Assembly (NCBI GenBank): GCA_015146655.1
Contig: VKHL01000022.1
Coordinates: 124,001-188,000, forward strand
DNA from: Ochromonas danica
Lineage: Eukaryota > Sar > Chrysophyceae > Chromulinales > Chromulinaceae
Reading direction: 5' to 3'
Length of the DNA: 64,000 nucleotides
The position numbers were made by a program, and so were the translations under genes. Under the pieces are notes generated by a model, which made no database searches, had not been told where the DNA came from, and worked only from the letters and a program-made list of their open reading frames with translations. Positions within the stretch are counted from its first letter, which is position 1. The number at the start of each line of letters is the position of its first letter. Below, in pieces: positions 9,242 through 36,913 of this stretch.

Positions 9242-9765
9242 TTAAGCAGTTTGTGGAGCCTCTACAGGAGCTGGAGGGACAGGCTTGACAGTGACGGCTT
9301 CAACAGCAGAGATGCCAGGGATAGCCTTGACAGCTGCCACGAATTGATCCTCTGGAGTGAAGTTCTTTGCCTCCTAAACAACCAATCAATCATAGACATT
9401 TCATCGATAAATGACATCATATGGGTCAAATGATGGATGAATAGATGACTTACCCATGAAGAGAAGTCCTTTTCATTCACTTCAAGAATGACTTTAATAT
9501 CATTAGTCTCTTTATCCACCACTTTCTCAATATGCTTGAGACCAGGTACTCTATGTAAGACCGTGTTGAACAAAACCAATGTTTGTTGAACAGAAGCATC
9601 TGCTTTATCATCACCATTCCACTTGAAAGTCCATTCACGCTTGATAGTATCCTGATGATGACCATGACTCAAATGGAGACCAAAAGCACGTGAAGGGGCA
9701 GGGAAAGTTCGGAAAGCCAAAGTATTCACAGCCAAGAGAACAAGAACAAGAAAGAGAAGCTGCAT
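9242..9765 (-). CDS. Small secreted protein of unknown function (147 aa)
   Basis: Two exons, 9765-9454 and 9373-9242, joined by an 80-bp GT-AG intron, encode 147 residues. The N-terminus is a clear signal peptide (MQLLFLVLVLLAVNTLAF, residues 1-18), so the mature protein is probably secreted or lumenal. The rest looks like one compact alpha/beta domain of about 110 residues, ending in a Pro/Val/Ala-rich tail. A stretch VLHRVPGLKHIEKV and a later VAAVKAIPGISAVEAV resemble each other, so the fold may be an internal repeat of a small beta-alpha-beta unit. I do not recognise the family. Its promoter abuts the start of the nucleotidyltransferase duplication. Confidence 0.7.
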
Positions 9766-9858
9766 CTTAACGTATCTTAGAGATGATAATAGAAAAACGA
9801 GTAGTGGAGGGAAGAAGGTTAGTTGAGGGTTATTTGGCTAATAGTCTATTAGACTCTA

Positions 9859-9899
9859 TAGTACAAGCACAAAAGGCCTTCTTGGTCTTGTTGTCTCCC
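9859..9899 (+). promoter_or_regulatory. Conserved upstream box, copy A (partner at 12351-12391)
   Basis: About 40 bp that match the corresponding position upstream of the second nucleotidyltransferase gene almost base for base, while surrounding non-coding DNA has diverged. Conservation above the local background suggests a promoter or leader element, though recent gene conversion is also possible. Confidence 0.4.
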
Positions 9900-9963
9900 C
9901 CACCACTGCAAGATTCAATTTGAAGCGCAATCCTGCCTCCGCAACAACAAGCACCAGGCTTGC

Positions 9964-10086
9964 ATGGAAAACATGGAATCCACATGGAACTACCGAGGGC
10001 TTTTCGATCCAGCTGCCCCTCAATTGGATGTTAACGTTATTTTCTCCATGATCATAAGGTTTGATCGAGATCACTTCCACTATTAA
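9964..10086 (+). pseudogene. Relic N-terminal coding start of the ancestral nucleotidyltransferase (copy A)
   Basis: An open frame from ATG 9964 to TAA 10084-10086 (40 codons) begins with MENMESTWNYRG, which matches the N-terminus of the intact second gene (MESTWNHRG, from 12437) in both DNA and protein. After that the copies diverge and this frame soon ends. It therefore looks like the original first codons of copy A, now cut off from the nucleotidyltransferase domain by the inserted zinc-finger DNA. It could still serve as a leader exon of the copy A transcript, since a GT follows within the frame, but I cannot support a specific splice. Confidence 0.5.
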
Positions 10087-10254
10087 CGAGAATGGCTGAA
10101 TTTGAATTGCCAATTGGAACCAACACAAACGAGAGGTCTTGGTGCTTCAAATTGCCGCGCAGACAATGGGGCGGCCTGGGGCTGAGAGAGGTCCACCTTC
10201 TGCTCTGCTCATGTTGGACGGGTGTGGGTGGGGACCAGAGACGTCACAATCAAA

Positions 10255-10644
10255 ATGCATCTGTACCTCATTGCTTCTCATGATGGGAAATGTCCCAAAG
10301 TCTTAAATGATATCAAAATAGAGGGAAATATCACTTTTAATGACATAGATTTTAAAATAATTTTGTTCACGACACCTAATGCAGAATACCTCGGTCCACC
10401 AGGAAAACATCCAAACTGCTTTGAAGTCATTCAGGCTAAAACCAATTGCTCCAGTGGACCTTATACGCGACTCCTGACGTATACAGTAACTGATTTGATT
10501 AAATACTATGGATATGGATATAGTGGTGGTAATTCAGTATTTTTTATCAACGACGAAACTTACAATTACCTCGAACTGGGGAACTATCTCATTGAGAATT
10601 ATAGAAATTTAACATGCAAAGTTCTGATTGGATGCGAGATTTGA
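10255..10644 (+). CDS. Upstream coding segment of the zinc-finger nucleotidyltransferase gene (probable first exon)
   Basis: This frame starts at ATG 10255 and stays open to 10644 (129 codons), overlapping the next frame. It encodes a globular-looking segment (MHLYLIASHDGKCPKV at the start, then hydrophobic beta-like stretches and a Tyr/Gly-rich part). I recognise no family. A GT-AG intron can be drawn from 10537 to 10604 (68 bp, the usual size here). It would join residues 1-94 in frame to the downstream zinc-finger frame and give a protein of about 590 residues. The donor, GTATTT, is weaker than most in this window, so the join is inference. Otherwise these could be two overlapping but separate reading frames. 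Confidence 0.45.
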   Translation: MHLYLIASHDGKCPKVLNDIKIEGNITFNDIDFKIILFTTPNAEYLGPPGKHPNCFEVIQAKTNCSSGPYTRLLTYTVTDLIKYYGYGYSGGNSVFFINDETYNYLELGNYLIENYRNLTCKVLIGCEI

Positions 10645-12095
10645 TATCTGTTTTTCCTGAGGACTGTTGTTGCAGTACTTGCTATACGGTTCATCCTCGA
10701 AGACACTGTCATAAAAAGTACTGTAATGGTTGCAGAAAATACTATTGTCCTTTGGAAGAAAAACAGCATGAAAGTGGATTGTTTTATCAAATTTGCAAAA
10801 CTGTTGGATGTGGCAAAACATTCTATCGATGCCAACTGGACCCTAATCATGAGAAGTCTCACCCAAAATGCGACTTATGTATATGCGGACAATACTTTAT
10901 AAGCAACGCGAGTCTCAATCAACACCAAGAAAAATTTTATGTATACCGTTGTGCAAGATGCAATGGGAAGTTTACCCAGAGTGATCTGTGGTTTCAACAC
11001 GGCATAAAAGAGAACCATATTCTCCAGATTCCGGGAGGAGACTACTATAACAGCTGTTATGACGTGAAAGCCATGAAAATCGCACTCGAACAGAAATTGA
11101 AAGCGAATTTCTGTTCGATATGTTCAGCATGTGGTGATTACAAGTTTTCTAATTTGAGCCATTTGTGTTTCATTATTAGCCCACCCCCCACCCCAGCACC
11201 TCCTGCTGCACCAGCTCGCGCTACGGTTGCTCCTGCTCCGGTTGCTTCTGCTCCTGCTTCTGCTCCTGCTCCGGTTGCTCCTACTTCGGTTGCTCCTGCT
11301 CCTGCTCGGGTTGCTCCTGTGCCTGCTCCTCCTTCTGAGTCTACTTCAGTTCACACTGGAGAAGCATGTAACATCGCCACCAAGTCTACATATGGTTCTC
11401 CAGAAGAAGGTCTTGTTCAACGTTTGCAAGACCACTGTCGAGAGGTTCACTGCCCATTCTGGACTCTAACGACCGATGAAAGGAAAACAATGAAAGAGCT
11501 CAAAGGGCACCTAATGAATAAACTAAATATGTTGGAAAGGCTCCAAGTAAAATCTCAGGGATCCATGGAGAAGAATACTGCCATCCCAGGCTTGGCAGAC
11601 TTCGACTTCATCCTCGAGCTGAAGGAGACTTCAAGAGACGGACTCACGCTAAAAGAGCTGCGAAATGAAGTGAAAGTTATTCTTGGAGATCAAGCTAGGT
11701 TTCTCTACGGAGAAGGCAAAGTCTTAACGTTCTATTGCGAAGACATCACATTTGATGTCATTATTAGTTGGTCGAATGAACAACTTATCCAACAAGCAGT
11801 GGATAATCTGAACGATGTTGTAGCCAAGCCGGGCGACCAGCGCGATAATTATCGCGCATATATGCGTGCTCTCAAGTACTTTTGCAAGCGTTTAGACTTT
11901 CCCATCAAGTCATTTGCTGTGGAGTATGTGGCTTTGCATTTGCTTCATGACAATCCCAATGCCAGGCTGAGAGAGTTCCTGCAGTTCCTTGAAAGAGGAG
12001 ATTGGAGCGTTCTACTTCACTGTGCTCCTGAAATAGAAGATCACATGAAAGACTTGAAAATACTTGCAACTAACCACCTTCGCTACTTGCCCTAA
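10614..12095 (+). CDS. Zinc-finger / Pro-Ala hinge / OAS-CD-NTase-like nucleotidyltransferase (copy A)
   Basis: The frame from ATG 10614 encodes 493 residues. Residues about 18-190 hold a dense Cys/His array (CCCSTCYTVHPRRHC, CNGCRKYYC, CKTVGCGKTFYRC, then CxCGQYF with trailing His, CARCNGKF, CSICSACGD), suggesting several zinc-binding units. Residues about 192-243 are a low-complexity Pro/Ala/Val hinge. The C-terminal ~235 residues are a Pol-beta-superfamily nucleotidyltransferase: GSxxKNTAIPGxADFDF (G316, S317, D329, D331), third acidic residue in TFDVIISW (D381), then the helical half with YMRALKYFCKR and FPIKSFAVEY. All three catalytic Asp are present. OAS and CD-NTase enzymes with this motif make 2'-5' oligoadenylate or cyclic (oligo)nucleotide signals, often when nucleic acid binds; activity and product here are inference. 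A tRNA- or poly(A)-type nucleotidyltransferase is a less likely alternative. The domain is intronless. Confidence 0.75.
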   Translation: MQSSDWMRDLISVFPEDCCCSTCYTVHPRRHCHKKYCNGCRKYYCPLEEKQHESGLFYQICKTVGCGKTFYRCQLDPNHEKSHPKCDLCICGQYFISNASLNQHQEKFYVYRCARCNGKFTQSDLWFQHGIKENHILQIPGGDYYNSCYDVKAMKIALEQKLKANFCSICSACGDYKFSNLSHLCFIISPPPTPAPPAAPARATVAPAPVASAPASAPAPVAPTSVAPAPARVAPVPAPPSESTSVHTGEACNIATKSTYGSPEEGLVQRLQDHCREVHCPFWTLTTDERKTMKELKGHLMNKLNMLERLQVKSQGSMEKNTAIPGLADFDFILELKETSRDGLTLKELRNEVKVILGDQARFLYGEGKVLTFYCEDITFDVIISWSNEQLIQQAVDNLNDVVAKPGDQRDNYRAYMRALKYFCKRLDFPIKSFAVEYVALHLLHDNPNARLREFLQFLERGDWSVLLHCAPEIEDHMKDLKILATNHLRYLP

Positions 12096-12249
12096 ATAGA
12101 GGTCAAAACTTGTGATGTAACAGACTAATGCGCCATGGAGTGCATGATATGTCGTTCTCTCTTCTTCTTTACTCGCCTATCCCATTGCATGCATCTTGTT
12201 TCGCAGTATCAGTTTCTTTCTCGTTGTCGTCTGCCAGGGAGGGTTATTT

Positions 12250-12273
12250 GTTGGCTAATCCAGATTAGCCAAC
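12250..12273. repeat. Short perfect inverted repeat
   Basis: Arms GTTGGCTAATC and GATTAGCCAAC (11 bp each) around a 2-bp centre. It sits just upstream of the second nucleotidyltransferase gene, at the left edge of copy B. Copy A keeps only the half-site TGGCTAAT at 9837-9844. It could be a binding site for a dimeric regulator or a scar of the rearrangement. Confidence 0.5.
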
Positions 12274-12350
12274 CGATCTGGAGAAATTACCCTTTTTCGA
12301 AATTGTCCGTTAAAATAGTACGGTAATCACCACTGGTAATAGTCTATCAT

Positions 12351-12391
12351 AGTACAAGCCCAAAAGGTCTTCTTGGTCGTGTTGTCTCCCT
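12351..12391 (+). promoter_or_regulatory. Conserved upstream box, copy B (partner at 9859-9899)
   Basis: This is the counterpart of the copy A box and ends about 45 bp before the ATG at 12437, so it is either core promoter or 5' leader. Only a few mismatches separate the two boxes. Confidence 0.4.
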
Positions 12392-12436
12392 GCGAGCTGG
12401 AGATTTGAATGTACAGAACAAGCTTGCGTGGAAAAC

Positions 12437-13327
12437 ATGGAATCCACATGGAACCACCGAGGTTTCCCAGAGTTCCTCAGACGTGTGTCGGATGTTCTTG
12501 TGAGAGAGAAAGAAGGTCCTCCAATCTGGAAACTTCTCACAATCGATAGAGAACATCGAACGAGGTATCAGAATTTACCCCCAGGCCCAAGAAAGACACC
12601 TTGTGTAAAAATAATGACCAGCATTACTTCATATGGTTCTCCAGAGGAGGGCATTGTTCTAATTGTGCAAGAACGCTGCAGAGAAGTTCATTGTCCCATT
12701 TGGACTCTTGGAAGCGAGGAAAGAGAGAGACTGAATAAAATCAAAGGAGAGCTAATAGACAAGCTGAATAAGCTGCCAAAGCTTCAAATTAAATTACAGG
12801 GGTCCATTGTGAAGAACACTGCCATCCCAGGCTTTGCTGACTTTGACTTTATCCTCGAGCTAAAGCGTTCAGTACCCAGGCCTAAGCTACGAACACTCCG
12901 CAATGAAATAAAAGCTAGCCTAGAAGACTCTGTGTTACTCTATGGAGAGGGTGCCATCTTAACCTTCTTCTATAAGGATGTCACATTTGATGTTATGATT
13001 AGCTGGCCGGAAGATCGGCTGATCCAGCAAGTGGAATCTAATCTGAATGATATTGTTACTCTACCGGGCAATCAGCGGAACAAATATCACGCATATATGC
13101 GTGCTCTCAAATACTTCTGCAAGCGTTCAGGATTTCCAATCAAGTCATTTGCTGTGGAATACGCGGCTTTGTATTTGCTTCGCCGTAACCCTAATACCAA
13201 ACTTAGAGAGTTCCTAGAATTCCTTCAAAGAGGAGATTGGAGCGATCTATCTCACTGTGTTCCTGAAGGGCCGAAGAGAAGAGAGTTGCAAACACTTGCC
13301 ACTCAATACCTTCGCTACTTGCGCTAA
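12437..13327 (+). CDS. OAS/CD-NTase-like nucleotidyltransferase (copy B, compact form)
   Basis: One exon encodes 296 residues from ATG 12437 (the longer frame begins with GTG). Residues 1-75 are a basic leader without recognised domain. The catalytic domain follows: GSIVKNTAIPGFADFDF (G122, S123, D135, D137), third Asp in TFDVMISW (D185), and a helical region with YMRALKYFCKR and FPIKSFAVEY as in OAS/PAP-type substrate-binding cores. By eye about two thirds of domain residues match copy A, and all catalytic residues are kept in both. It lacks the zinc-finger and Pro/Ala regions of its neighbour. Known for the fold: transfer of nucleotidyl groups using two metal ions held by three acidic residues. 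Inferred role: synthesis of a nucleotide second messenger, perhaps in defence. It lies tail-to-tail with the coiled-coil gene, stops 196 bp apart. It is intronless while most neighbours have introns. Confidence 0.8.
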   Translation: MESTWNHRGFPEFLRRVSDVLVREKEGPPIWKLLTIDREHRTRYQNLPPGPRKTPCVKIMTSITSYGSPEEGIVLIVQERCREVHCPIWTLGSEERERLNKIKGELIDKLNKLPKLQIKLQGSIVKNTAIPGFADFDFILELKRSVPRPKLRTLRNEIKASLEDSVLLYGEGAILTFFYKDVTFDVMISWPEDRLIQQVESNLNDIVTLPGNQRNKYHAYMRALKYFCKRSGFPIKSFAVEYAALYLLRRNPNTKLREFLEFLQRGDWSDLSHCVPEGPKRRELQTLATQYLRYLR

Positions 13328-13523
13328 ATAGTCCATAGATCATTAGTTCATCATAGATCAAACAGCAGCTAGATGAACCTCATATATTGTGATGTATTAG
13401 ACCATGATGTAACAGAGTAAAGCTATTTCCACACATCCCACCTCAATTAATAACACAACGATCTACCACATATAGATTATAACCAATGAAAAGGATAACC
13501 TATTCCATCTATCTCATATTATG

Positions 13524-15267
13524 TCATGCTCTCTTCTTCTTTCCTCGCCTAGGAGCTGCTGAGACATCTTGCGGCTCTGACTGAGACCTCATCACAGCAT
13601 TCTCTTGCGCCAGACTACCTTGACCTCCATGAGACTCCTTCGAGTAGATACTGGGTAGGATGGTATGACTCACCAAAGCTGCTCGTTTTGAACTATCAAA
13701 CCAACACAACAGTCAGAGATGATATTGGCAATTGTAAGGTTGGACCAGTGAAGGAATTCAGTACCTTAGTTCTAATTCTCTTTGCATGGACTCACGTAAC
13801 TTGAGAATAAGATCTGCATTTTGTACTGACAGTTCTTCCACCTGAAGAGAGAAACAACACATTCAATCCACAATAACAGAGGTTATAAGTCCACTTTTAC
13901 GATTAAAAAACTAGAAAGAGTACTCACCGCATCCATAAGAGCTGCTTCTCGTTCTCGAAGTCGTCCATTCTCTCCTTCTAATGCTGCTATCGTTGTCTCT
14001 CCCCCTCCACCACCACTATTATGACTCTCCTTATTTGTCTTCTTACTTACTTTCTTCCGAGATTTCAAAGCTTCCACAAGTCGAGATTCTTTGGCTTCTA
14101 ATTCTTGTTCTGCTTGATGTAATTTGGCATTAAGTCGTGCTACTTCTCCTTTCAAACGATCCATATGAGCTGCCATGAGATCAGCATGTTCTTTCAAGCG
14201 ATAAATCTTATCATCTTTCACTTTCAATTCTTTGCGTAATAGTTTCATTTGTGTCTCAAGAGAAGCAAGCACATCTTCAGAAGGAGGAAGAAGGTCATCA
14301 CCTCGACTCTCTGGCAGAGCAAAAGAAGGTCTGGGTAAAGGAGGCTATGCAAGCACAATGAGACGCAAAAAACAAACACATCAGATCACGTCATGAAATG
14401 CAGAGGAAAGGGTCTCACCTGTTGGGAGATGGGTATGTTATTCTTGTTATAACTACTGCTACTACTACTGATATTGTTCGCATTGTTAGTAGTAGAGGAT
14501 GATTTCTTTTTCTTGCTATTGTTGCCTTGTTGACGATTCTTGACATATCGCTCAGGGAAGAGTTCCATGAGGAAAGCCTCTACCCTCTGAGCCTGAGACT
14601 GTGTCTCTCCTTCATCTTCCTCTTCTCCTATAGGTCCATCAGTTGATCGCATGGGATGGATTGCAGGTTGTTGAGGAGGTTGTTGTTGGTCATAGCTGCC
14701 AACACTGCCATTAGGGAGAGGGAAGTGAGAGACAAGCGCTCCTCCAGATGGGGCAGTTGTGTCTGATAGTGATGCCCCAGCTGCACCTCGGATCTTAGCC
14801 CCCTTTCTCCCTCCTTTCCGCTTCTGAGGATGACTCTCTCCGGCCTCATCCTCTCCGTCATTTAAGTCGATACCCTTGAGGTACTCCTCCAGGATGGAAG
14901 ACCCTGGCACTTTAGCCAGAGGACTCCCAGCCTCAATACTCACTGATTTCTTGACAGCACCTGGGGTCTTCACTCTTTTCTTTGGGGAGGGTATAGCCCC
15001 GTCCTCTCTGTCCATCATCTTGCTGCTAGAGGGAGAGAAGGACAGTGACGAGGTCAGACCAGCTCCAGCCTCACCCTCCCCTCCTCCTCCTCCTCCTCCT
15101 GCTACTGTCTCTTTGGTCTGTATAGCATTAGGGGACTGAGTGAATTGTGCTGATGCCCCCTCTGTATGATTATTATCATCTTCTTCTTCAAATTCCTCTT
15201 CTTCATAATCTTCCTCTTCCTCCTCGTCGTCTTCTGATAACTCTTCTTTTTCTTTCTTCATCTCCAT
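13524..15267 (-). CDS. Acidic, low-complexity coiled-coil protein of unknown function
   Basis: Exons 15267-14419, 14344-13928, 13841-13765 and 13692-13524 (GT-AG introns of 72-86 bp, frame kept) encode about 503 residues. Seen: a run of Asp/Glu at residues 8-35, a Gly/Ser-rich and basic middle, poly-Ser/Asn, then a long coiled coil at roughly residues 300-400 (ETQMKLLRKELKVKDDKIY and heptads after it), a second short coil, and a basic tail ending RRGKKKRA. I do not recognise the family; a cytoskeletal or centrosomal scaffold is plausible but unproven. Upstream, 15480-15670 holds splice-like sites (CCCCCACAG acceptor, CTG/GTGAGT donor) whose frame could join to this one, so the real 5' end may be longer. 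The gene diverges from the aldehyde dehydrogenase gene, and its last codons overlap the duplicated 3' block of the nucleotidyltransferase locus. Confidence 0.7.
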
Positions 15268-24816: not shown

Positions 24817-27013
24817 ATGTCAAGTAGTAGTAGTAGCAGTGTGAATAATATGAACAAGACCAAGTCTCTTAAGTTACGAGGTGTTCAACCTCGTCTAGCA
24901 TGGGGTGGAAGACCTTTTCTTGGTGCACATTCAAATCTTCTCACAGTTAGTGATAATGAATATATTTTAGCAACAGGAACAAGTTTTGCTTTCTTAGAAA
25001 ATGCTTCAATACATAATCGTCGTAGTTACTTTGTTGAACCACCTACAGCAGAGGTTGTTGAAGTACGTCTAGCATGTGTAAGTAATGATGGGAAGTATGT
25101 AGCAGCAGTCACTAAGATGCGACCTGATAGCACAGCTACCACTACCTCTAACACTACCTCACAAGCTATGACAACGAACACTACTAACACCACTACCACT
25201 ACCTCTTCTCCAACTCCTCCAGCTACTGCTAATGGTAACAGTAGTGGTAACAGTAGTGGTGGTATGATACCCACAACAACAACAACAATTCAAAACTATT
25301 TCAATTCCTTAACCATTTTAGTCTATAATACTAACAATCATATGCAAGATAATATACGACCACATGAGATTCGATATACCTTACCTGATACTTCAACTTC
25401 AACTTCAACATCTCATTACCATCATGATCCATTAGAAGTCAATGGTATTACCTTCTCTCATGATGATGTCCTCTTAGCTGTCATTACTAACTATCCACCT
25501 TATGGAGTGCTAATCTTTGATCATTTCAAAGGAAGTCTCTATCAAACTATTGCTACAGAATCAATACCATTAGCAATCTCATTTAATCCAACTGATGCTT
25601 TCAAAATATGTGTTACAGGAGAATCGAATTTAATTCGTTTATGGAGATTTACAAGTAAAGCAGTTCATATGGCACCGATTTCAGGGTTAAAGAAAAGCTA
25701 CTTATCGTATAATTGTCATGGATGGATAGCACCTTATAATGAATCATTAATAGTAGCAGGAAGTGATAATGGATCATTATTGTTAATTCAAAATTGTGAA
25801 CAACGGATACCTATCATACCAGTCTTTACAGGATTAAACGACATACCACAAACTACTAACACTACCACTACAAATAAGACAACGGCTAGTACTACAGCAG
25901 CAGCAGCAGTAACGGCTACTACCACTACTACTACTACCACGACTATAGTGACGACCACACCACCATCAACGGCTAGTAGTAGTAATAGTAGTATTAAACA
26001 TTTATTAATACGAGGAGATATTGTCATAGTTGCATCATCAAGTTATCATATTGCCATGTATGAAGTAAGAAGAAGTATGTCCACAAAAGGTGGTAGTGGT
26101 GGTGGTGGTGGGGGTAGTGGTGTGGGACTAACGGCTACTTTAGTGTTATTAGCAAGATATCGATTAGATCGTGTGGAAGCTATTCATGGTCTAACCTTTG
26201 CATTAAAAGAAAGTAATACCTCATATACATTAATGGCATCGACAACAAATGCATTAGTCAGTTTGGATATTATTACTGATTTTGATTTAAGTGGTGGTCG
26301 ACTATTAAAAGGTAATAGTGGTAATCAAGCTATAAATACGACAAATACACCGAAGAATCAAAGTATGATTGACATGTCAACACGTCGTCCATTTGATGAC
26401 ACGACTGGACCAAATGCTGTTAGTAATGGTAGTGGTAGTGGTAGTAGTGCGATGGAATGGACGTCAGTAGCAATGGAAAAAATAGTGTTTCATTTCCATT
26501 CTAAAGCAATCACTTCTTTATCCATGGCAGCACAAGGAAGTACTTTCTTGACATTTTCTTATGATGAAGGAATTATTCGATTTTGGGATTATGCAAATCC
26601 AAATACTTTTACTTCCATTTGGATGACACAGAATTTCAAAGAACGTATGGAAGATATTCCATTTCATGTTGATCTTCATCCAAATGGTGTTCAATTAGCA
26701 TGTGCAAATGAAATGGAAGTAAAAGAATATGCTATATGGGATACACAAATTGAATTAATACGTCGTATTCCTGTACGTATTCCATTTAAAGGAAATAATG
26801 GTGTTCCTATTGTTATTTCACAACCTGTTTCATTAGTAAGATATTCTAATGGTGGACATTTATTAGCTGTTGTGACAGGAAAGATTATTCAAATCTTTCA
26901 TCTTTATCTACGTGAAGATCAATCAAATCATTCTTCACAATCTGGTAAGACTTTGATATCGTTAACTCGTGTAGTATCTTATCTCTAACTCATCATTCAC
27001 TTTGTGTATCCAT

Positions 27014-27096
<83 letters not shown>

Positions 27097-30000
27097 TGTG
27101 TGTCTGTGTGTGTGTGTGTGTCTGTGTGTCTGTGTGTGTGTGTGTCTGTGTGTGTCTGTGTGTCTGTGTGTCTGTGTCTGTGTGTGTGTCTGTGTGTGTA
27201 TGTGTGTATGTATGTGTGTGTCTGTGTCTGTGCGTGTCTGTGTGTGTGTGTGTGTATGTGTGTACTGTGTGTGTGTGCATTGTGTGTGTTTACTGTGTGC
27301 GTGTGTACTGTGTGTGTGTGTATGCGTGTGTTTTGTTGTTTCTAGGCAATCCTTATCGCATGATGACATTAACAGAGCATATAGCACCTGTGACAGATGT
27401 CATCTTTCTACGTGATGATGACATGCTCATCACATCTTCTAATGATGGTTGTGTCTATAGTTGGAGAATTAGTCCAGGAACACGTAATCGTGAGAAAGAA
27501 TTTGTTAAACGTGGATTTGCTGTTAGTCATCTTGCAATGGGTAGATATCAAGGAGCTAAGACTATTCTTGCTTCATTTGAATCTACTTTACTGTCTAATG
27601 ATAATGTTAATGCTTCAATGAATCCTGGGGTAGAAGCAGTACGTCGACGAAGACAATCTTCAGCTTTTGCTAGACGATCCATGCAAGCAGCAACGGCTAC
27701 TGCTACTGCTACTGCTACCTCCTCTACCTCTTCCTCTTCTTCTACAGTACATGCATTTGATCCGTTACGTGCTTCACGTGAAGGATTATTATTAAGACAT
27801 TCTATAGAAGGAGGAGGAGGAGGAGGTCAAGGTCATGATGAGATAGGTCTAGCCTTGGCAGCCTTCTCACAAGGTAGTGGCGAGGGGGTGCTGCTACCGG
27901 AAGGTAACACTCCCATGCTAGCAGGTAATAACACTACCAATGCTCCATTCCGCCCGATGGTCCATGCTTCATCTAGAGCAGGTGGTAGTAGTGGTATTGG
28001 TGGAACAGGAGCAGGAGGAGGAGGAGGTAATGGGGTAGTAGTAGTAGCAGGAGGAGGAGGGGTATCAAAGTACTACTTCCTAGCCATGTGGGAGAAGGAA
28101 ATCTCTAACAACCCCACTATCATCTACCTCCCCAATGCTGTACGATCCATGACATTTGGTCGTACAGCAGGACCCGATAGTGTAGAGATGTGTCTCATTG
28201 GACTAGCCGATGGCCAGGTCATCCTCTCTTTGCTACCCTTGCCTCTCATGGCCTTCAATGAAACGGCTACTATCACTACTACCCTACCACCGCCTGGTAC
28301 TACCACTACCACTAATACCATGTCATCATCCAATAAGAACATCTCCTTTTCAGCCAATGCGACAGTAGAGAGTAAACGATTGTCTGTCTCATCATCGGGT
28401 AGAATGAAGAAAGGAGGAGGAGGAGGAGGTGGTGGAGGAGGAGGAGGATTGAGTGCAGTGGTAGAGTTAGATGATGATAATACCACAGCTGATCCAAGCA
28501 CTGCTCGCTCTCGTGTTACCCTCAATAATGATGATACCTTCTCACTCCCTGGAGTAGCAACAGGAGGAGGAGGAGGAGGGCAGCAGAAGGGTAGTAACGG
28601 TAACAACAACACTACCTCTGCCTCTACCTCCTCTCCCTCCCCTGCTGTGGGTGGTAGTAGTGGTACTATAGGTGACCCTACAATGAACAACAATAGCAAC
28701 AACAACAACAACAACAACAACGGTGAAGAGGGTAACAACAACGGTAACAATGGTAACAGTGGTAACAATGCCTACCAGTTGGTGATGAGTCAGTGTCGGG
28801 TCATTCGACCAGCTGTAGGCTTCGTCAGTCAGATAGCCTTCACACCAGATGGCTATTGGATTGTCATCACGGGAGAGGACGGTAGTGTCTTCCTCTTCTC
28901 TACCATTCGCAAGTTTGGCGAGCATCTATGGGAGACTACCTCCACTACTTCTACCTCTTCCTACCATGACACCTCCTCGGCCACTACCACCACCTCTACC
29001 TCTTTTGCTAAGACACAGTTCTTACTAGTTGAACGTAGTAAAATGGAAGCAGTACGTTCAAAACTAATTGAAATGGAAAGTTTATTTGAACAATCACATA
29101 AAGATCATGAATTATATGTTAATAAACTATTAGAAGGAAGAGAAAAAATGTTATTTGATTTAGAACAAAAAATGCAACGTGAAATACAAAGTCGTGATGA
29201 AACAATATTACAAGGAAGACGTGATTATCTAACATTGAAAAAATCAACACAAGATGAAATACAAGAATTAAAGAAAAATAGTGATAATGCTTTATCATCT
29301 TTAGAAATGATGTATGAAAGAAGATTAGCTGAAGAATCAGTTTATGTACAAAAAATGAAACAAGCATATGATGAATATGTTGTACATATGAAAATGGATA
29401 TGAATCAAATACAACAACAAGTAAATCAAAAACTTAGTCTAATGGAAGATGATAAACAACATTTATTACAAGAATCAAATCGTCAAAAACAAGCTATATT
29501 AGAATATTATGATTATATGAAAACACGTAATCATGAAGTATTAGCATCATTAGAAGATCAACAAGTTGAAGAACGTAGTAAATTGAAATCTACATTAAGT
29601 CAAACTCATGCTATGTTAGCTGAAGCACAAGCTAAAAATATGTCTAATGAAGTACAAGCAAATCATACCATTTCAAAATTAAAAGTTGAAATTGAAAATA
29701 AAGAAATTGAAATGTTAAGAATACGAAGTGATTTAGAATGGGCAAATGATCGAATTGGTAAATTAGAAAATGCTTTACAACAAGCTACATTAGAATTAAA
29801 AATACGTATGGATGTGAATGAAAAATGGGAAATGAAATCAGGTGAAATGATTAAACGAATTGAAGAATTAGAAACAGTACGTAAAACATTAACATCTCAA
29901 TTACATTCTTTACGTGAAGAAATTTTACCAACAGAAGAACAATTACATCAAACATTAGAAAAATTACAAGAAATTGATCGTGAATATGAAATTTCTTTAC

Positions 30001-31811
30001 ATGCAATTACAGAAAAGGAGAAAATTTTATCCTATAAATCTGAAAATTTATCATTATTACAAAAACAAGTACGTGAATTAAGAAAGAAAAATACATTAAA
30101 AGATGCTGCATTAAAACGTGCTGCTTCATTATTAGAAGAATTTATCTATGCTATGCATGAAGAACGTTTTCTACCCAAGAATCGTATGATGGCTAATACT
30201 ACTACTACTACAACTACAGGAGGAGGTAGTGGTGGTCTAGGTAGTGCAGGAGGTCTAGGTAGCAGTGCAGCAGAAGGAATCATGGAAGGTAACACAGCTT
30301 TACCTTCAGCATCTAATGAACTTCCTTTAAGCTCTTCGATGGACTCCAAGTCTCGTGTTGGCTCAGTCATGATGACGAGGTCGTCTATGGCAGGCAACAA
30401 TTTGCTTTCCAATGCCATCGCTGCAGCTACCATGGCCGTATTGGGTAATGCTACTACTAGTGCTAACTCTCCTGTCATGACTGCAACGAATGAACGAAAC
30501 CTTTCTACTGCTGCTTCTGGGTCATCCCCTGCACCTCCAGCACTAGTTAAGACCATGACTATTGGTGCTAGAAGTAGTAGCACACAGATTGGTGCACCAC
30601 CACCAGGTAGTGGTAGTGGTACAGCAGGTCTAGTAAGTGGTAGTAATAATGAAAGTGGGAAAGAGAAGTCAAAGCTATTATCTCGACAAGCTCTCTTAGC
30701 ACAACCTCATAGTCATGATTTAATTGCAGCATTAAAATTAGAAGGTGGAGTTAATATGAAGTTACGACGATTAAATGATGTATTAAAACCTTATTTGAAA
30801 GATGGAGATGTTAATGTAAGTAGCTATAGTATATCCTCTATATTGCTTGCTTTCCTTCTGTCTGTTAGAAGTACTAACGATGATGATGTTGTTGTTAAAT
30901 AGGAGGAAATGTTAGATGAAGCAGAAGCAGTTCGACGTGAACAAGATCGACATATGTCATTATTACATCGTAATTTCTCTTCTTTACAATCTTCTTTAGA
31001 GACTGCACAACATGTCTTACATGACAAAGTTCATAACCATCTCTCTGATAATCAGACCTTATTAAGAGAAGTGAATCAATTACGATCTGAAGTCAAAAGT
31101 CTATCATTAGAGAATCAACGTCTAGCAGCACAAATTGATTTCTTTCGAACACGTAAACAAGATCAATTACAAGGTTTTACAAGTCAATTTATATCAACAG
31201 ATGATCCAATGAATCTTCTGTCGAATGATCATCATTATGAGCAACAACAGAATGAAAGGAAGAAGTCACGACCATCTAGTCGAACCTATTCACCTGGTCA
31301 AACACAAGGAGGAAAAGATCGTGGTGGTTCATCTGCAACAACTCCTATTACTTTCCCTGCTTTATCTGCACCAACGCCTACTGCCCCAGAGATTGATAAT
31401 AGCAATTTGTTGATGATGAAGAAGAAATCTACCTCTTCTGCTGTCTCGGAGGTCAATCAAGCTAGACGACTCATAGGGAGTCAAAGCCAATCTGTTTTGC
31501 CAAACACAAGCTTGTCGGCCAATAGCAATAACAACAACAAGAGCAAAGCAAGCAAGACTACTGTGATACCATCACGTAACAAGCCTATGAAGTCTGTTGA
31601 AGAGCTCTTGGGTAATTCTTTGGATAGCTTTCATCGCAGTTATGATGATTCTTTGAAGGACACCAAAAACAACAATAAACAAGCAGCTGGTGGTAAAGGA
31701 AGTAATAGTTCTACCACCACCTTATCGAAAGGTCCAATGACAGCTGAAGAGAAGATCGCCAAGATTGTGGAGCTCAACTTCGAAGAAATCCGATCAAACA
31801 ATAAGAAGTAA
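24817..31811 (+). CDS. CFAP57: CFAP57 (WDR65) ciliary protein: WD40 repeats plus long coiled coil
   Basis: Exons 24817-26944, 27346-30815 and 30903-31811 (introns 401 and 87 bp, frame kept) encode about 2168 residues, against ~1250 in animals. Seen: an N-terminal beta-propeller set (LAWGGRPFLGAHSNLL at the start, GIIRFWDYANPNTF, TDVIFLRDDDMLITSSNDG, PDGYWIVITGEDGSVFLFS), interrupted by Thr-, Gly-, Ser- and Asn-rich inserts, then a coiled coil at about residues 1269-1650, a Gly/Ser spacer and a second coil (about 1867-1952), followed by a Ser/Asn-rich tail. Motif order matches CFAP57, a motile-cilium axoneme protein involved in inner-arm dynein assembly. The size excess comes from simple-repeat inserts. 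The coiled-coil part uses almost only A/T-ending codons, unlike the preceding ~1 kb. Good evidence that the organism has motile cilia. Confidence 0.88.
27012..27334 (+). repeat. (TG)n / (TGTGTC)n microsatellite inside CFAP57 intron 1
   Basis: About 320 bp of TG repeats, interspersed with TC, TA and CG variants, fill most of the 401-bp first intron. The open frames of alternating Cys-Val (plus) or His-Thr (minus) across this stretch are repeat artefacts. Confidence 0.95.
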
Positions 31812-32800: not shown

Positions 32801-35800
32801 TTAAATCGGTTGTGTGGAGCCAGATTCGGAAGGAGGAGGATATGACGCTTCAGAGTGCATGTTAGTCAGGAAGGGCGGGGGAGCTCCATAACTAGAGCTT
32901 AGACTACCTGGTAAGCTATTGTGCATGTGATAATAGGGAGGTGGGGGAGGCCCACGTCCTCCGCCCTGTGGACCCCCTCCAGGATACATATGACGAGGAG
33001 GAGCAAACATAGGAGGCCCTGGATAGACTGGAATACCAGGATAAGGAGGCATTGGCATAGGCATCGCACCATTTCCACCACCCATATGAGGCATACCCAT
33101 GGGTGGCATTCCGGGCATTGGAGGACCATAAGAGCCAGGGCCGCCAGGACCGTGATCTGGAGGAGGACCGCGAGGCCCACACCCACGATGACCTCTTGGA
33201 CTATGAGGACCATGATGGCCACCATGTCCTCGGTGACCACCTCCATGGTTGAATCCCCCATGGTGAGGATGGCCACCATGAGGTGGAGGCATATGCATGT
33301 GAGGAGGACCATAAGGATAATAGTAGCCAGGTCCAGGAGGACTATTCGGCTCCTGGCCTGGAGAGCCACCCTCTCTACCACCTTCACCACCGGGTGAAGG
33401 AGGATCCATGAAGGGAGGTGGTGGTGGTCCTCCGGGGTAAGACATGGGCATTGCGATAAATGGAGGATAGGAACCATAGGGACTTTGGGCCATTCCCTCT
33501 GGAACACCTGAGAAAGATCCGGATGCATTATTTCCATTTGCAGTTGATCCATTACCTCCACCATTAGAATGGCCATTTGAAGCCCCACTGTTGTTAAATT
33601 TGGCCTTGTTGTGCTGCTTGTTCTGTTTGTTTTGAGCAAGTTGAGCTTCTTTCTGGGCTTGGGCCTGCAGCTGCAAAGAAATGGAATAAGGAGTGAAGAG
33701 ATATGCGGCATGACCAAAGCCACGTGCTAACAGAAGATCTTCATCGTCTATGCTCAAAAGTGGTGACTCTCCGAGGAGAGTGACCACAGGATTGAAGGGA
33801 TGCTCAGTGCCCATCTTCAACTCCGTAAAGCTGTTCAGCGAAACATCATTAGACAGAAATGGAAAACGTCGCAAAATAAAAATGTAGCAATTACCTTGAT
33901 CGTTCTATCGCTTTCTTCAATCCTCCAAACTGCTCCTTTAGCCTTCGTGACAAATTATTATCACAATTCAACAGAGCCTGCAGATTCTTTCCGATCTCTC
34001 CGACAGGCATTGGTCCTTTCTGCTTCCAAACAAAGTATGAGTGGTAAATCCCATCCACTCAAAGATATGCTGCTAACCTTGTTTAAGATAATTATAATGA
34101 GGTGTAGCAAAAGTTGCTGATCAATTTTTCCTCCCAAAGCTAGTTGACCATAGCTCAGCGCAAACTAAACAAGTGGACAAGCTAATGAGCAACATAAAGA
34201 AGAAAAAACTCGAAATCCGCTAACCTGTAAATCTCTGACAGCAACACTAAAGACGCAACTTGGTGTACTATCGCCTTTCTTATTCTCAATATATTGAGTC
34301 ATCTTCGTCAGATTTTCAATACCGCACTTGATGCACGTGTTGGCAAAGAGTTTGCGAACAATTTTGTTTGATTTCTCCAATACAGATTGCTGGTCAACAT
34401 CAGAGGGAAGAGACGTCGATGTTTTGCTCAATTCATCGCAGACAGACTGGAAATGCTTATATCCTTCATGCAAACCAGACACAAATGCCTCCAGTCCCAA
34501 TGCCTCAATAGGTGCGAGAAGATTGTGAGTGTTATCTACAGGGTCAATAAGATTGCATCGAGAAAACTCATATTCAGGATGAACTTCATTCCTCTTCCTC
34601 TCCTCCTCAGACACTCCATTAGTTGATGAAGCGCTATGCTCGTCAATAGAAGGTACCGCAGAAGGAGCAGTCTGACCCAATGTGTCTTGGGAACACGATA
34701 AGGAACTCGTCACAGTTGCATCACCCGCTTCTCCGACATGATCATTCGTTTCATGAACAGTCTGCCAATCAAGGTAATCACCGTGGGCTATATTGGAGAT
34801 ATTGAAAATTCTCTCGGGGAAGAATTTCTCTGTGTTCTTTGGCTGAATATTGTCAGAAATGTATACCAGAGATTTATCTTCAGCACGGAAAGCTGGACCT
34901 CTCACAGTCATCATAAGGTTGCACCAATCAAAGGAGCTATAATAGGCAAAGAATTGACCCAGTGCTTGAAGCGGGTGAGTGATCAAAGCACCTTTGGCAT
35001 TGAAGATGTATATCATGAGGACAGTTAAAGCCCAAGAAGAGAGACGCCCGTCCTTCACTCCCAGCAAGCTACCACCTCCATTAGTATAGCGAGCCGATTC
35101 AAACTGAAACCAAGCTTTCAATAAGAGAATGGATCTCTTGAATAAGTTATTCCTTCCCACAAAAGCATTTAACCTTTCGATCAAGACCTCCGTATAGATC
35201 GAATTCAGCTGATTGGTAGAGACAGTTACAGCAACATTATTGATCATGCTGCGAATCATCTTTATCTCATCGTTAACGAAGCTCACATTGCTCACAGAAA
35301 CCTTTTCCTCGTCATGATTTTCGTCATTAGGGCCGAACGCAGAAAGGCATAACGCTTCATTAATCTTAACGAACCAGCCGTCATCTGCCAATTTTGGAAC
35401 AAAGGCCGTACAATCAATCCCACTTTCAGGAAGGAAGGTGTGAGATACTAAACTGCCAATGGGGAAGAGTTGGCAGCCCAATGTAGTGCTCACAAGATCG
35501 CGAACGTACTTGAAGATAGTGTAACGAGAAACGATAGCTTCTTCAGATGGAGTAATAGCATCAACAATCACGTCGGCTATATTAGTCATAGAAGCAATCC
35601 AATTTGTCGACACCTCTGTGACAGTCGTACGAGACGGGTCCAAAATAGATTCCGATAAATCAGCCCCATAGAACTTGCTCTCCGCAGCATTGCATACAAA
35701 TTTAGCAGAGATGATAGGACTCTTTCTGCTGGGATGATAATCATAAGAGGGAAGTCGACGTGACTTTTCTGGTGTTTGTGACGATAGACCAATGTTCACC

Positions 35801-36913
35801 TTCTGCGCCAGCAGTTCATTGCTCAATCTAATGGCATCCTGCAGTTGCAAAGAAACGGCATATGCGCGCGCATCTTCAGGCTTAGGACTCACAGATGCTA
35901 AACGATCTGGTTGGGCCGCTAGATTGATGGCTCTGACAACCTCCTCCATCGGAAGGCTGTCTGCGCTTTGCTCGCTGTTGTCAGCATTGTCTTCGTCGCT
36001 TGACTCATGAGTCTGTTCTTGATATAAAACAGCATGTTCTTCGGTTAATTCACCACGTAATTGATGTGACAAATTTCCATCCACACCACTAAGAGAACGC
36101 AGAACAGAATTGGGAAGCTGCTGACTGGCCATTCCTGTTGCCTGTTGCAGAAAGATCATCTCCATTTGAGATAACCTGGCTTGGAGAACATTCACCTAAA
36201 ATATAAATATAAATATACATATTACATGAGAAACCACCTTAAAACAAGCAAAATTGATGAATTACAAGAGCTACCTACCTGCTTGCGAGCGACAGCAAGA
36301 TCGTCTGTTAACTTGGCGGTCTCTGTTTGGTTTGTAGTTTTCATCGAATTCAACATCTAAAAAGGACACGAATGTCAATGATTGGAAGCTGAACAAATGT
36401 CATTATACAAGTACTTACATCTTGTAAACGTCTCATTCGTTCAAAGTTCCAAATGAACGTCATAATATTTGACTCATCGTTTAAGAAGAGGACAAGATCA
36501 TTTCGAGTCCAAATTTGAGGCAATCGAATAAGTAAACTCAAATATTTCTCTAATTGATCTCTTCTTTGATCAACAATTTCAGGATCTGATGATGATCGCA
36601 AGTATCGCTTCGGGGGAAGTGGAGGAAATCGTAAGTTAGGATGATGCTTACGTAATTCTCGATCCAAATAGTAAAAATCACGATATCTACGTTTAATCGT
36701 CCATGCACGTAATGGTGTGGTAACTCGAATCACATAGACAGTATGATCTTGATTTTGTTCAGTTTGTGGGATAGAAATTCTTGTTGTTGAGCATTCTACA
36801 GAACGACGACGAGACGAGGTACGATCTTCTCCTGAATCAGCCCAGGATGGTTTATAATTACTATCTTCATCATCAATAGTAGACTCAACAGAAATCATAC
36901 GAGGTGCTGACAT
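32801..36913 (-). CDS. PX domain - coiled coil - PAP/OAS1-like nucleotidyltransferase - LOTUS-like domain fusion protein
   Basis: Exons 36913-36419, 36356-36279, 36195-34225, 34164-34078, 34019-33895 and 33830-32801 (all GT-AG, frame kept) give about 1261 residues. Residues 45-147 are a PX domain (RRYRDF at 75-80, PPLPPKRYL, then DQRRDQLEKYL), which binds phosphoinositides on endosomal membranes. Residues 165-215 form a coiled coil. Residues about 385-680 resemble plant/protist PAP/OAS1-type proteins (GCQLFPIGSLVSHTFLPESG, IDCTAF, LLKAWFQFE, later RCNLIDPVDNTHNLLAPIEA). The usual DID catalytic pair reads GID, so the first Asp is missing and activity is doubtful. Residues about 878-950 look like a LOTUS/OST-HTH domain (GPMPVGEIGKNLQALLN, FGGLKKAIE, EHPFNP), an RNA- or protein-binding module. 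The last ~270 residues are Gly/Pro/His/Met-rich. Inferred role: RNA handling at a membrane. Confidence 0.8.

What the first reader, a model, noticed from the sequence alone, without database searches (positions are those of the whole stretch)
9826..13552. Tandem pair of OAS/CD-NTase-like nucleotidyltransferases in a protist
Two neighbouring genes encode Pol-beta-superfamily enzymes with GSxxKNTAIPGxADFDF and a third Asp in TFDVxISW, the layout of OAS/cGAS/CD-NTase enzymes that make 2'-5' oligoadenylate or cyclic nucleotide signals. Both copies keep every catalytic residue despite about one third divergence, so both seem to be under selection. Such enzymes are core immune sensors in animals and bacteria but are little known in free-living protists. 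Function is inferred; the motif itself is plainly visible.
Basis: partly seen in the sequence, partly recalled or inferred. Interest (0 to 1): 0.85.

Follow-up and report, generated by a model that had tools for sequence, protein, structure and literature searches.

The report
Tandem CD-NTase-like enzymes, one zinc-fingered
A small-genome eukaryote carries two neighbouring, duplicated genes for an enzyme distantly related to the signal-making immune enzymes of bacteria and animals (one copy with a zinc-finger-like front end), a divergent version of a kind already known in protists.

Summary
Copy A (10614-12095) and copy B (12428/12437-13327) are tandem duplicates, 60% identical over the domain, both keeping GS and three Asp, with shared flanks and dN/dS about 0.3. 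A genome search found no third copy.

By sequence, the nearest relatives I could test are bacterial CBASS cyclases (CD-NTases). PADLOC cyclase models reach 2.1e-9 (A) and 3.4e-7 (B). A profile of 12 bacterial CD-NTases scores B 30.1 and A 26.3 bits, against at most 11.2 for six ncPAP-like pieces of the same genome and 3.0 for 76 decoys. A model of A (pLDDT 77) shows the two-lobed fold, but Foldseek cannot separate CD-NTase, OAS, CCA, TUTase and NF45/90, and AU tests do not decide. No Pfam model matches at E<=10, so OAS1_C, Mab21 and SMODS are not found. Val-Pro after the third Asp, present in 12 of 12 bacterial rows, is missing.

The rarity claim fails: OAS-like CD-NTases are reported in 8 of 12 eukaryotic supergroups (PMC10732462). 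Verdict: a divergent OAS/CD-NTase-like pair; signal synthesis is likely but untested.

The parts
10614..12095 (+). Copy A ORF, 493 aa: Cys/His-rich N-terminal part, Pro/Ala-rich linker, NTase domain at the C-terminus
   Evidence: unspliced ORF, the true start and upstream exons are not settled
10614..11171 (+). Cys/His-rich, zinc-finger-like region of copy A (five CxxC; 21 Cys and 10 His in the first 200 residues)
   Evidence: weak C2H2 match in Pfam (E 0.16) and weak Krueppel-like factor 4 matches in PDB (best E 0.014)
11175..11348 (+). Low-complexity linker of copy A, 64% Pro+Ala over residues 188-245
11349..12092 (+). NTase domain of copy A: GSMEKNTAIPGLADFDF at 11559-11609, TFDVIISW at 11748-11771, LKYFCKR at 11871-11891, KSFAVEY at 11907-11927
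12428..13327 (+). Copy B ORF, 299 aa from GTG (first in-frame ATG at 12437); GSIVKNTAIPGFADFDF at 12800-12850, TFDVMISW at 12983-13006, KSFAVEY at 13142-13162; lacks the zinc-finger-like part
9847..9998 (+). Upstream element shared with copy B, ends in codons for MENMESTWN-RG (ATG at 9964); probably the promoter/first exon of copy A
12337..12462 (+). Upstream element of copy B, the partner of 9847-9998
12143..12179 (+). 37-base downstream stretch of copy A, 86% identical to the one behind copy B
13515..13551 (+). 37-base downstream stretch of copy B

Best explanation
Two tandem genes encode template-independent nucleotidyltransferases with a short second half, whose nearest relatives among those tested are CD-NTases, the family that holds OAS, cGAS and the bacterial CBASS cyclases. 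Shown: the three metal-binding Asp positions, the two-lobed fold (predicted model of A), the helical half with its R-x-x-K and S-F-x-x-E positions, and long purifying selection between two tandem copies. Inferred: both copies bind NTPs and two metals and join nucleotides into a small signal (linear oligonucleotide or cyclic di/trinucleotide). Copy A's zinc-finger-like front, tethered by a Pro/Ala linker, would act as its nucleic-acid or protein sensor; copy B, without it, would be either constitutive or switched through its own NTase surface. The product, ligand and receptor are unknown.
For: PADLOC: 13 of 14 model matches for A and 9 of 9 for B are 'oligonucleotide-cyclase', best 2.1e-9 (35.5 bits) and 3.4e-7 (28.2 bits). 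Controls: E. coli pcnB and a window PAP-like ORF, 0 families; six own-genome PF22600 (MTPAP-like) pieces, best cyclase match 12.0 bits, E 0.024 (one of them reached 19.9 bits with another PADLOC model, PDC-S09, which A matches at 14.5). A profile of 12 bacterial CD-NTases gives B 30.1 and A 26.3 bits; four CD-NTases not in the profile give 308.9 (L095, a close relative of a profile row), 91.1, 41.4 and 21.2; six ncPAP-like pieces at most 11.2; 76 decoys at most 3.0; reversed A -0.5. It matches the NTase core and, separately, the helical part. The reverse search (A+B profile against 110 ORFs of the bacterial loci) puts CD-NTases in ranks 1-10, though the best E is only 0.001. Model of A with 14 rows: pLDDT 77.2; top PDB match CdnC (5.7e-7), OAS3 and cGAS among the 50 shown. 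Split of CD-NTases + A + B from five of six ncPAPs: 98/98. dN/dS about 0.3.
Against: No Pfam model at E<=10; PHROGs nothing for B and one weak match for A (E 0.27). Phmmer of B (E<=1) and the A+B profile (E<=10) found nothing in PDB. Phmmer of A gave 10 weak matches, none named as an NTase (best TM_1646, E 0.0039). NCBIfam's archaeal CCA model scores A about as well as its CBASS model (22.3 against 22.8 bits) and scores B better (21.3 against 17.3 bits). V-P after the third acidic residue, present in 12 of 12 bacterial rows, is missing; the stretch from there to the helix Lys is 39 residues against 48-73, and GS to the end 178/175 against 204-285. Foldseek ranks NF45/90, TUTase and CCA close behind CdnC, some with higher TM scores (0.59 and 0.57 against 0.54); the model was made with CD-NTase rows, so CdnC in first place is partly built in. 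AU tests reject neither grouping with CD-NTases (p 0.277) nor with ncPAPs (p 0.172). No STING match, but the control genomes rang for neither STING model. Pfam names no effector among the 15 other window ORFs scanned; several of these had no match at all.
Confidence: 0.5

Rival explanations
1. An RNA-tailing enzyme (TUTase/non-canonical poly(A) polymerase-like), with copy A's zinc fingers choosing the RNA.
For: The third-Asp motif (TFDVxISW, no V-P) and the short stretch of 39 residues before the helix Lys look closer to TUTases (recalled) than to CD-NTases. Foldseek lists TUTases and GLD-2 among its best 50 matches. The AU test does not reject a grouping with ncPAPs (p 0.172).
Against: No Pfam match. 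The CD-NTase profile scores A and B 26-30 bits and own-genome ncPAP-like pieces at most 11.2 (some of these pieces are exons without the helical half). A and B have T five residues after the GS serine, as do the 12 bacterial rows; of the six own-genome ncPAP-like pieces only L110 does. The SFxxE position is that of the CD-NTase rows.
Confidence: 0.22
2. A class I (archaeal-type) CCA-adding or other tRNA-acting enzyme.
For: TIGR03671 matches A at 22.3 bits (E 4.8e-5) and B at 21.3 bits (E 1e-4); for B this is more than the CBASS models of the same library give. CCA enzymes are high in the Foldseek list, TM up to 0.57. Three archaeal control genomes ring with the PDLC00803 cyclase model, presumably through their CCA enzymes (not looked at), so cyclase models may not exclude CCA-like enzymes.
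Against: Scores far below the family cut-off (281.3 bits); the match covers profile positions 12-132 (A) and 13-115 (B) of 410. The proteins end soon after the helical half, leaving no room for the further domains of CCA enzymes (recalled). PADLOC cyclase scores are higher (35.5 and 28.2 bits).
Confidence: 0.08
3. A structural, non-catalytic relative such as a DZF (NF45/NF90/ZFR-like) RNA-binding dimer; ZFR also combines zinc fingers with such a domain (recalled).
For: NF45/NF90 have the highest TM scores among the 50 matches shown (0.59) and copy A is zinc-finger-like.
Against: All three Asp and GS are kept in both copies after dS 0.83, unlike a degenerate site. No Pfam match to any such model.
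Confidence: 0.08

Closest known systems
Bacterial CBASS cyclases (CD-NTases), PADLOC PDLC00803 type and CdnC
   Same: GS motif with T, paired Asp, third acidic residue, RxxK and SFxxE in the helical half, two-lobed fold
   Different: 13-18% identity of A to the 12 bacterial rows; lacks V-P after the third acidic residue and has a shorter second half; in a eukaryotic genome, no effector recognised beside it
OAS superfamily (2'-5' oligoadenylate synthetases)
   Same: KNT-G-AD-D layout reminiscent of OAS (recalled), two-lobed fold; OAS3 among Foldseek hits
   Different: No OAS1_C match; shorter (recalled OAS1 length)
Eukaryotic cGLR and eSMODS superfamilies
   Same: Catalytic triad and fold; a choanoflagellate cGLR-STING pair works biochemically (PMC12424679: outline with abstract, and passages)
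   Different: No Mab-21 or SMODS match; no STING match in the own-genome searches, which had no working control
ZFR/NF45/NF90 (DZF proteins)
   Same: Zinc fingers plus an OAS-like fold (architecture recalled); high TM score
   Different: All three catalytic Asp kept here; no Pfam match

Membership tests
CD-NTase family (broad) | GS motif and three metal-binding acidic residues | tested here: met
   A D329/D331/D381, B D138/D140/D188
CD-NTase family (broad) | Spacing [E/D]h[E/D] X50-90 [E/D] as written in PMC12424679 (passage) | tested here: inconclusive
   49 residues in A and 47 in B; but 2 of the 12 bacterial rows (L089 47, L088 48) also fall just short
CD-NTase family (broad) | Match to curated CD-NTase/CBASS cyclase models | tested here: met
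   PADLOC 2.1e-9 and 3.4e-7; but far below NCBIfam's CBASS cut-off (22.8 for A and 17.3 for B against 200 bits)
CD-NTase family (broad) | Two-lobed fold with helical half | tested here: met
   model of A, pLDDT 77.2; the alignment used held CD-NTase rows, and the fold is shared with CCA, TUTase and NF45/90
CD-NTase family (broad) | V-P after the third acidic residue (seen in 12 of 12 bacterial rows; my observation, not a published definition) | tested here: not met
   DVII / DVMI instead of [DE]x-V-P
CD-NTase family (broad) | Synthesis of a cyclic or linear oligonucleotide signal | not testable with these tools
   needs biochemistry
OAS superfamily | OAS1-C domain PF10421 | tested here: not met
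   no Pfam match at E<=10; genome-wide PF10421 search empty, but its control rang nowhere
cGLR superfamily | Mab21 domain PF03281 | tested here: not met
   no Pfam match at E<=10; the defining clade was not tested
eSMODS superfamily | SMODS PF18144 and NTP_transf_2 PF01909 | tested here: not met
   no Pfam match at E<=10; the defining clade was not tested
Archaeal-type CCA-adding enzyme | TIGR03671 over its cut-off and full length | tested here: not met
   22.3 (A) and 21.3 (B) of 281.3 bits, positions 12-132 and 13-115 of 410
TUTase / non-canonical PAP | Pfam PAP/TUTase domains | tested here: not met
   no Pfam match; the own-genome search with PF22600 lists seven places, neither copy among them
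DZF (NF45/NF90/ZFR) | DZF domain in Pfam | tested here: not met
   no Pfam match

The most novel reading that the evidence does not exclude
A further eukaryotic CD-NTase lineage, outside OAS, cGLR and eSMODS: with a short second half, without the V-P motif, and in one copy fused to a zinc-finger-like sensor. A survey that requires an OAS1-C, Mab21 or SMODS domain would have dropped it.
Probability: 0.3. Interest if true: 0.65.

Novelty: new variant of a known kind. Interest (0 to 1): 0.42.

Why it matters
The published eukaryote-wide survey removed sequences without an OAS1-C, Mab21 or SMODS Pfam domain (PMC10732462, methods passage). This pair matches none of these, yet its best matches are to CD-NTase models. 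If the pair makes a nucleotide signal, eukaryotic signal-making NTases are more varied than the three superfamilies named there, and copy A would be a natural zinc-finger-coupled sensor in which to look for the trigger.

Tried and rejected
Profile-profile comparison (hhalign) was tried and thrown out. A+B against 12 CD-NTases gave 99.75% probability, but column-shuffled queries also reached 99.3% (40 shuffles, highest score 141.8 against the real 184.7) and the reversed query 99.2%. The probability means nothing here, and the low scores against pcnB, PAP-like and ncPAP profiles are not comparable either.

A search of PDB with the 14-row alignment finds CD-NTases, then OAS, then CCA, but 12 of its rows are bacterial CD-NTases, so it says nothing about A and B.

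Foldseek with the better model does not separate the candidate families. The viral-structure library gave one match at E<=0.001, a Tupanvirus ORFan at 5.5e-4.

The first tree used a wrong stretch for ncPAP L107 (my motif pattern hit the wrong GS); it was rebuilt with the right stretch, and only the second is used. The AU tests decide in neither.

Relatives were sought and not found in phages, plasmids, viral contigs and prokaryote contigs. STING_LBD, prok_STING and OAS1_C searches of the own genome were empty, but the control genomes rang for none of the three models, so absence is not shown.

Exact splicing of copy A was tried by eye and left open: no pair of splice sites was clearly best.

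Literature: four searches of an open-access library. Of PMC10732462 I saw the outline with abstract, passages, part 1 of section 7, and section 10; of PMC12424679 the outline with abstract, and passages; of the others only the search listing. I saw no paper on a zinc-finger CD-NTase in a protist in these listings; that is no proof that there is none.

Full report
WHAT IS THERE. The window is part of contig 22 of an unnamed 31.19-Mb genome in 337 contigs. It is eukaryotic in style: genes read as broken ORFs with short introns, for example 9374-9453 on the minus strand (my reading by eye). The lineage was not determined, so 'protist' is likely but not shown. Two plus-strand ORFs lie head to tail. 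Copy A, 10614-12095, has 493 codons. Copy B, 12428-13327, has 299 codons from GTG, with the first in-frame ATG at 12437. Searching the genome with B found these two places and no other (only the best candidates of a first look are scored there).

THE TANDEM PAIR. The domains are 60% identical in protein and 73% in DNA. They share an upstream element of about 150 bases, ending in codons for the same peptide MENMESTWN-RG, and a 37-base downstream stretch. A search of the genome with the upstream element found only these two places. So the duplication took in the gene with its flanks. Over 237 aligned codons dS is 0.83 and dN 0.25 (Nei-Gojobori with Jukes-Cantor correction; the first eight aligned codon pairs were left out). 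Both frames stayed open, and GS and the three Asp are the same in both.

ANATOMY. Copy A has a Cys/His-rich part (21 Cys and 10 His in 200 residues, five CxxC) with only weak zinc-finger matches (Pfam C2H2 E 0.16; PDB Krueppel-like factor 4 E 0.014). A Pro/Ala linker follows (64% P+A), then the NTase domain. Copy B has the NTase domain and a short different N-terminus. The A model made with 14 rows has pLDDT 77.2 and the order helix, helix, two strands around the GS loop, helix, three strands, then five helices: a polymerase-beta-like lobe followed by a helical lobe.

WHICH FAMILY. Pfam gives nothing for either domain at E<=10. PADLOC gives 14 families for A, 13 of them oligonucleotide cyclases (best 35.5 bits, 2.1e-9), and 9 of 9 for B (best 28.2 bits, 3.4e-7). 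NCBIfam gives archaeal CCA at 22.3 and CBASS cyclase b at 22.8 bits for A, and 21.3 and 17.3 for B; all are far below the cut-offs. Control scans with PADLOC: E. coli poly(A) polymerase and a PAP-like ORF of the window, 0 families each; six PF22600 (MTPAP-like) pieces of the own genome, cyclase matches of at most 12.0 bits, though PDC-S09 models reach 19.9 bits in one of them. These pieces are single open stretches, so some lack the helical half.

A FAIRER TEST. I fetched CD-NTases from 398 Pseudomonadota genomes with PDLC00803 (16 genomes matched), plus one. A profile was built from 12 of the 17 loci. Of the other five, four served as held-out positives and L090 was left out because of an internal stop. 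Over 92 targets the order was: held-out 308.9 (L095, close to profile row L093), 91.1, 41.4; then B 30.1 and A 26.3; held-out 21.2; then ncPAP-like pieces 11.2 and below; 76 window decoys 3.0 and below; reversed A -0.5; pcnB -1.4 (reversed B did not appear among the rows reported). Two separate stretches match: the GS/Asp core, and the R-x-L-K ... K-S-F-x-x-E part of the helical half. In the reverse direction the A+B profile ranked CD-NTases first to tenth among 110 ORFs, with weak scores (best E 0.001); L093 and L103 came at ranks 12 and 13, L095, L099 and a piece of L090 lower, and L096 and L098 were not in the 27 rows printed.

LIMITS. The fold search cannot choose: CdnC is first (5.7e-7), but NF45/90, TUTase, CCA, CdnB and OAS3 follow within about one and a half orders of magnitude, some with better TM scores, and the model had CD-NTase rows as input. 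In the tree, A+B and all 16 CD-NTases lie apart from five of six ncPAPs (98/98), with ncPAP L110 (a very long branch) also on the CD-NTase side. The AU tests reject neither A+B with CD-NTases (p 0.277) nor with ncPAPs (p 0.172). A high hhalign probability was found to be an artefact by shuffling and is not used.

WHAT DIFFERS FROM KNOWN CD-NTASES. After the third acidic residue the 12 bacterial rows all have V-P one residue on; A and B have DVII and DVMI. From the third Asp to the helix Lys there are 39 residues in both copies against 48-73 in the 12 rows, and from GS to the end 178 and 175 against 204-285. The Asp spacing is 49 and 47 residues against the X50-90 written in PMC12424679, but two of the 12 bacterial rows also have 47 and 48, so this is no real difference. 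None of the three Pfam domains that mark the eukaryotic superfamilies (OAS1-C, Mab21, SMODS; PMC10732462) is found. So I call the pair CD-NTase-like and do not file it in OAS, cGLR or eSMODS.

HOW IT PROBABLY WORKS. Shown: triad, fold (model), constraint. Inferred: NTP polymerisation or cyclisation by two-metal catalysis, and a sensor role for the front part of copy A. Choanoflagellate cGLRs whose activity does not need DNA or RNA (PMC12424679, passages) show that a protist enzyme of this kind can be constitutive in vitro; copy B could be such an enzyme. Nothing here identifies the product. RNA tailing is the strongest rival.

NOVELTY. CD-NTases in protists are not new: 313 sequences from 109 eukaryotes, 34 of them metazoans, and OAS-like in 8/12 supergroups (PMC10732462). 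What is unusual is the divergence, the short second half without V-P, the zinc-finger-like front of one copy, and the tandem pair. Interest is moderate.

Noticed in passing
window 9964-10644 (+): Copy A's gene probably starts at 9964 (the MENMESTWN peptide shared with B). An ORF at 10222-10644 in another frame, whose only match in the genome is itself, overlaps the start of the main ORF, so an intron or a frame break lies between them.
   Followed up: partly
window 34165-36195 (-): ORF of 676 aa that looks PAP/TUTase-like to the eye (SSWALTVLMIYIF ... FFAYYSSFDW); Pfam (E<=0.01), NCBIfam and PADLOC find nothing.
   Followed up: partly
window 24817-31811 (+): WD40 ORF followed by coiled-coil ORFs, perhaps one ciliary gene (CFAP57-like, from recall); the ORF at 27012 begins with a long Cys/Val run from a simple repeat.
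   Followed up: no
L090 (unnamed bacterial genome): A CD-NTase close to PDLC00803 (1.3e-83) has an in-frame TAG inside.
   Followed up: no
BFVD A0A6N1NDK7 (Tupanvirus deep ocean): The only viral predicted structure at E<=0.001 (5.5e-4, TM 0.45) is a giant-virus ORFan of 233 residues.
   Followed up: no
search method: hhalign here gives over 99% probability even for column-shuffled queries against a deeper profile; such values need a shuffle control.
   Followed up: yes
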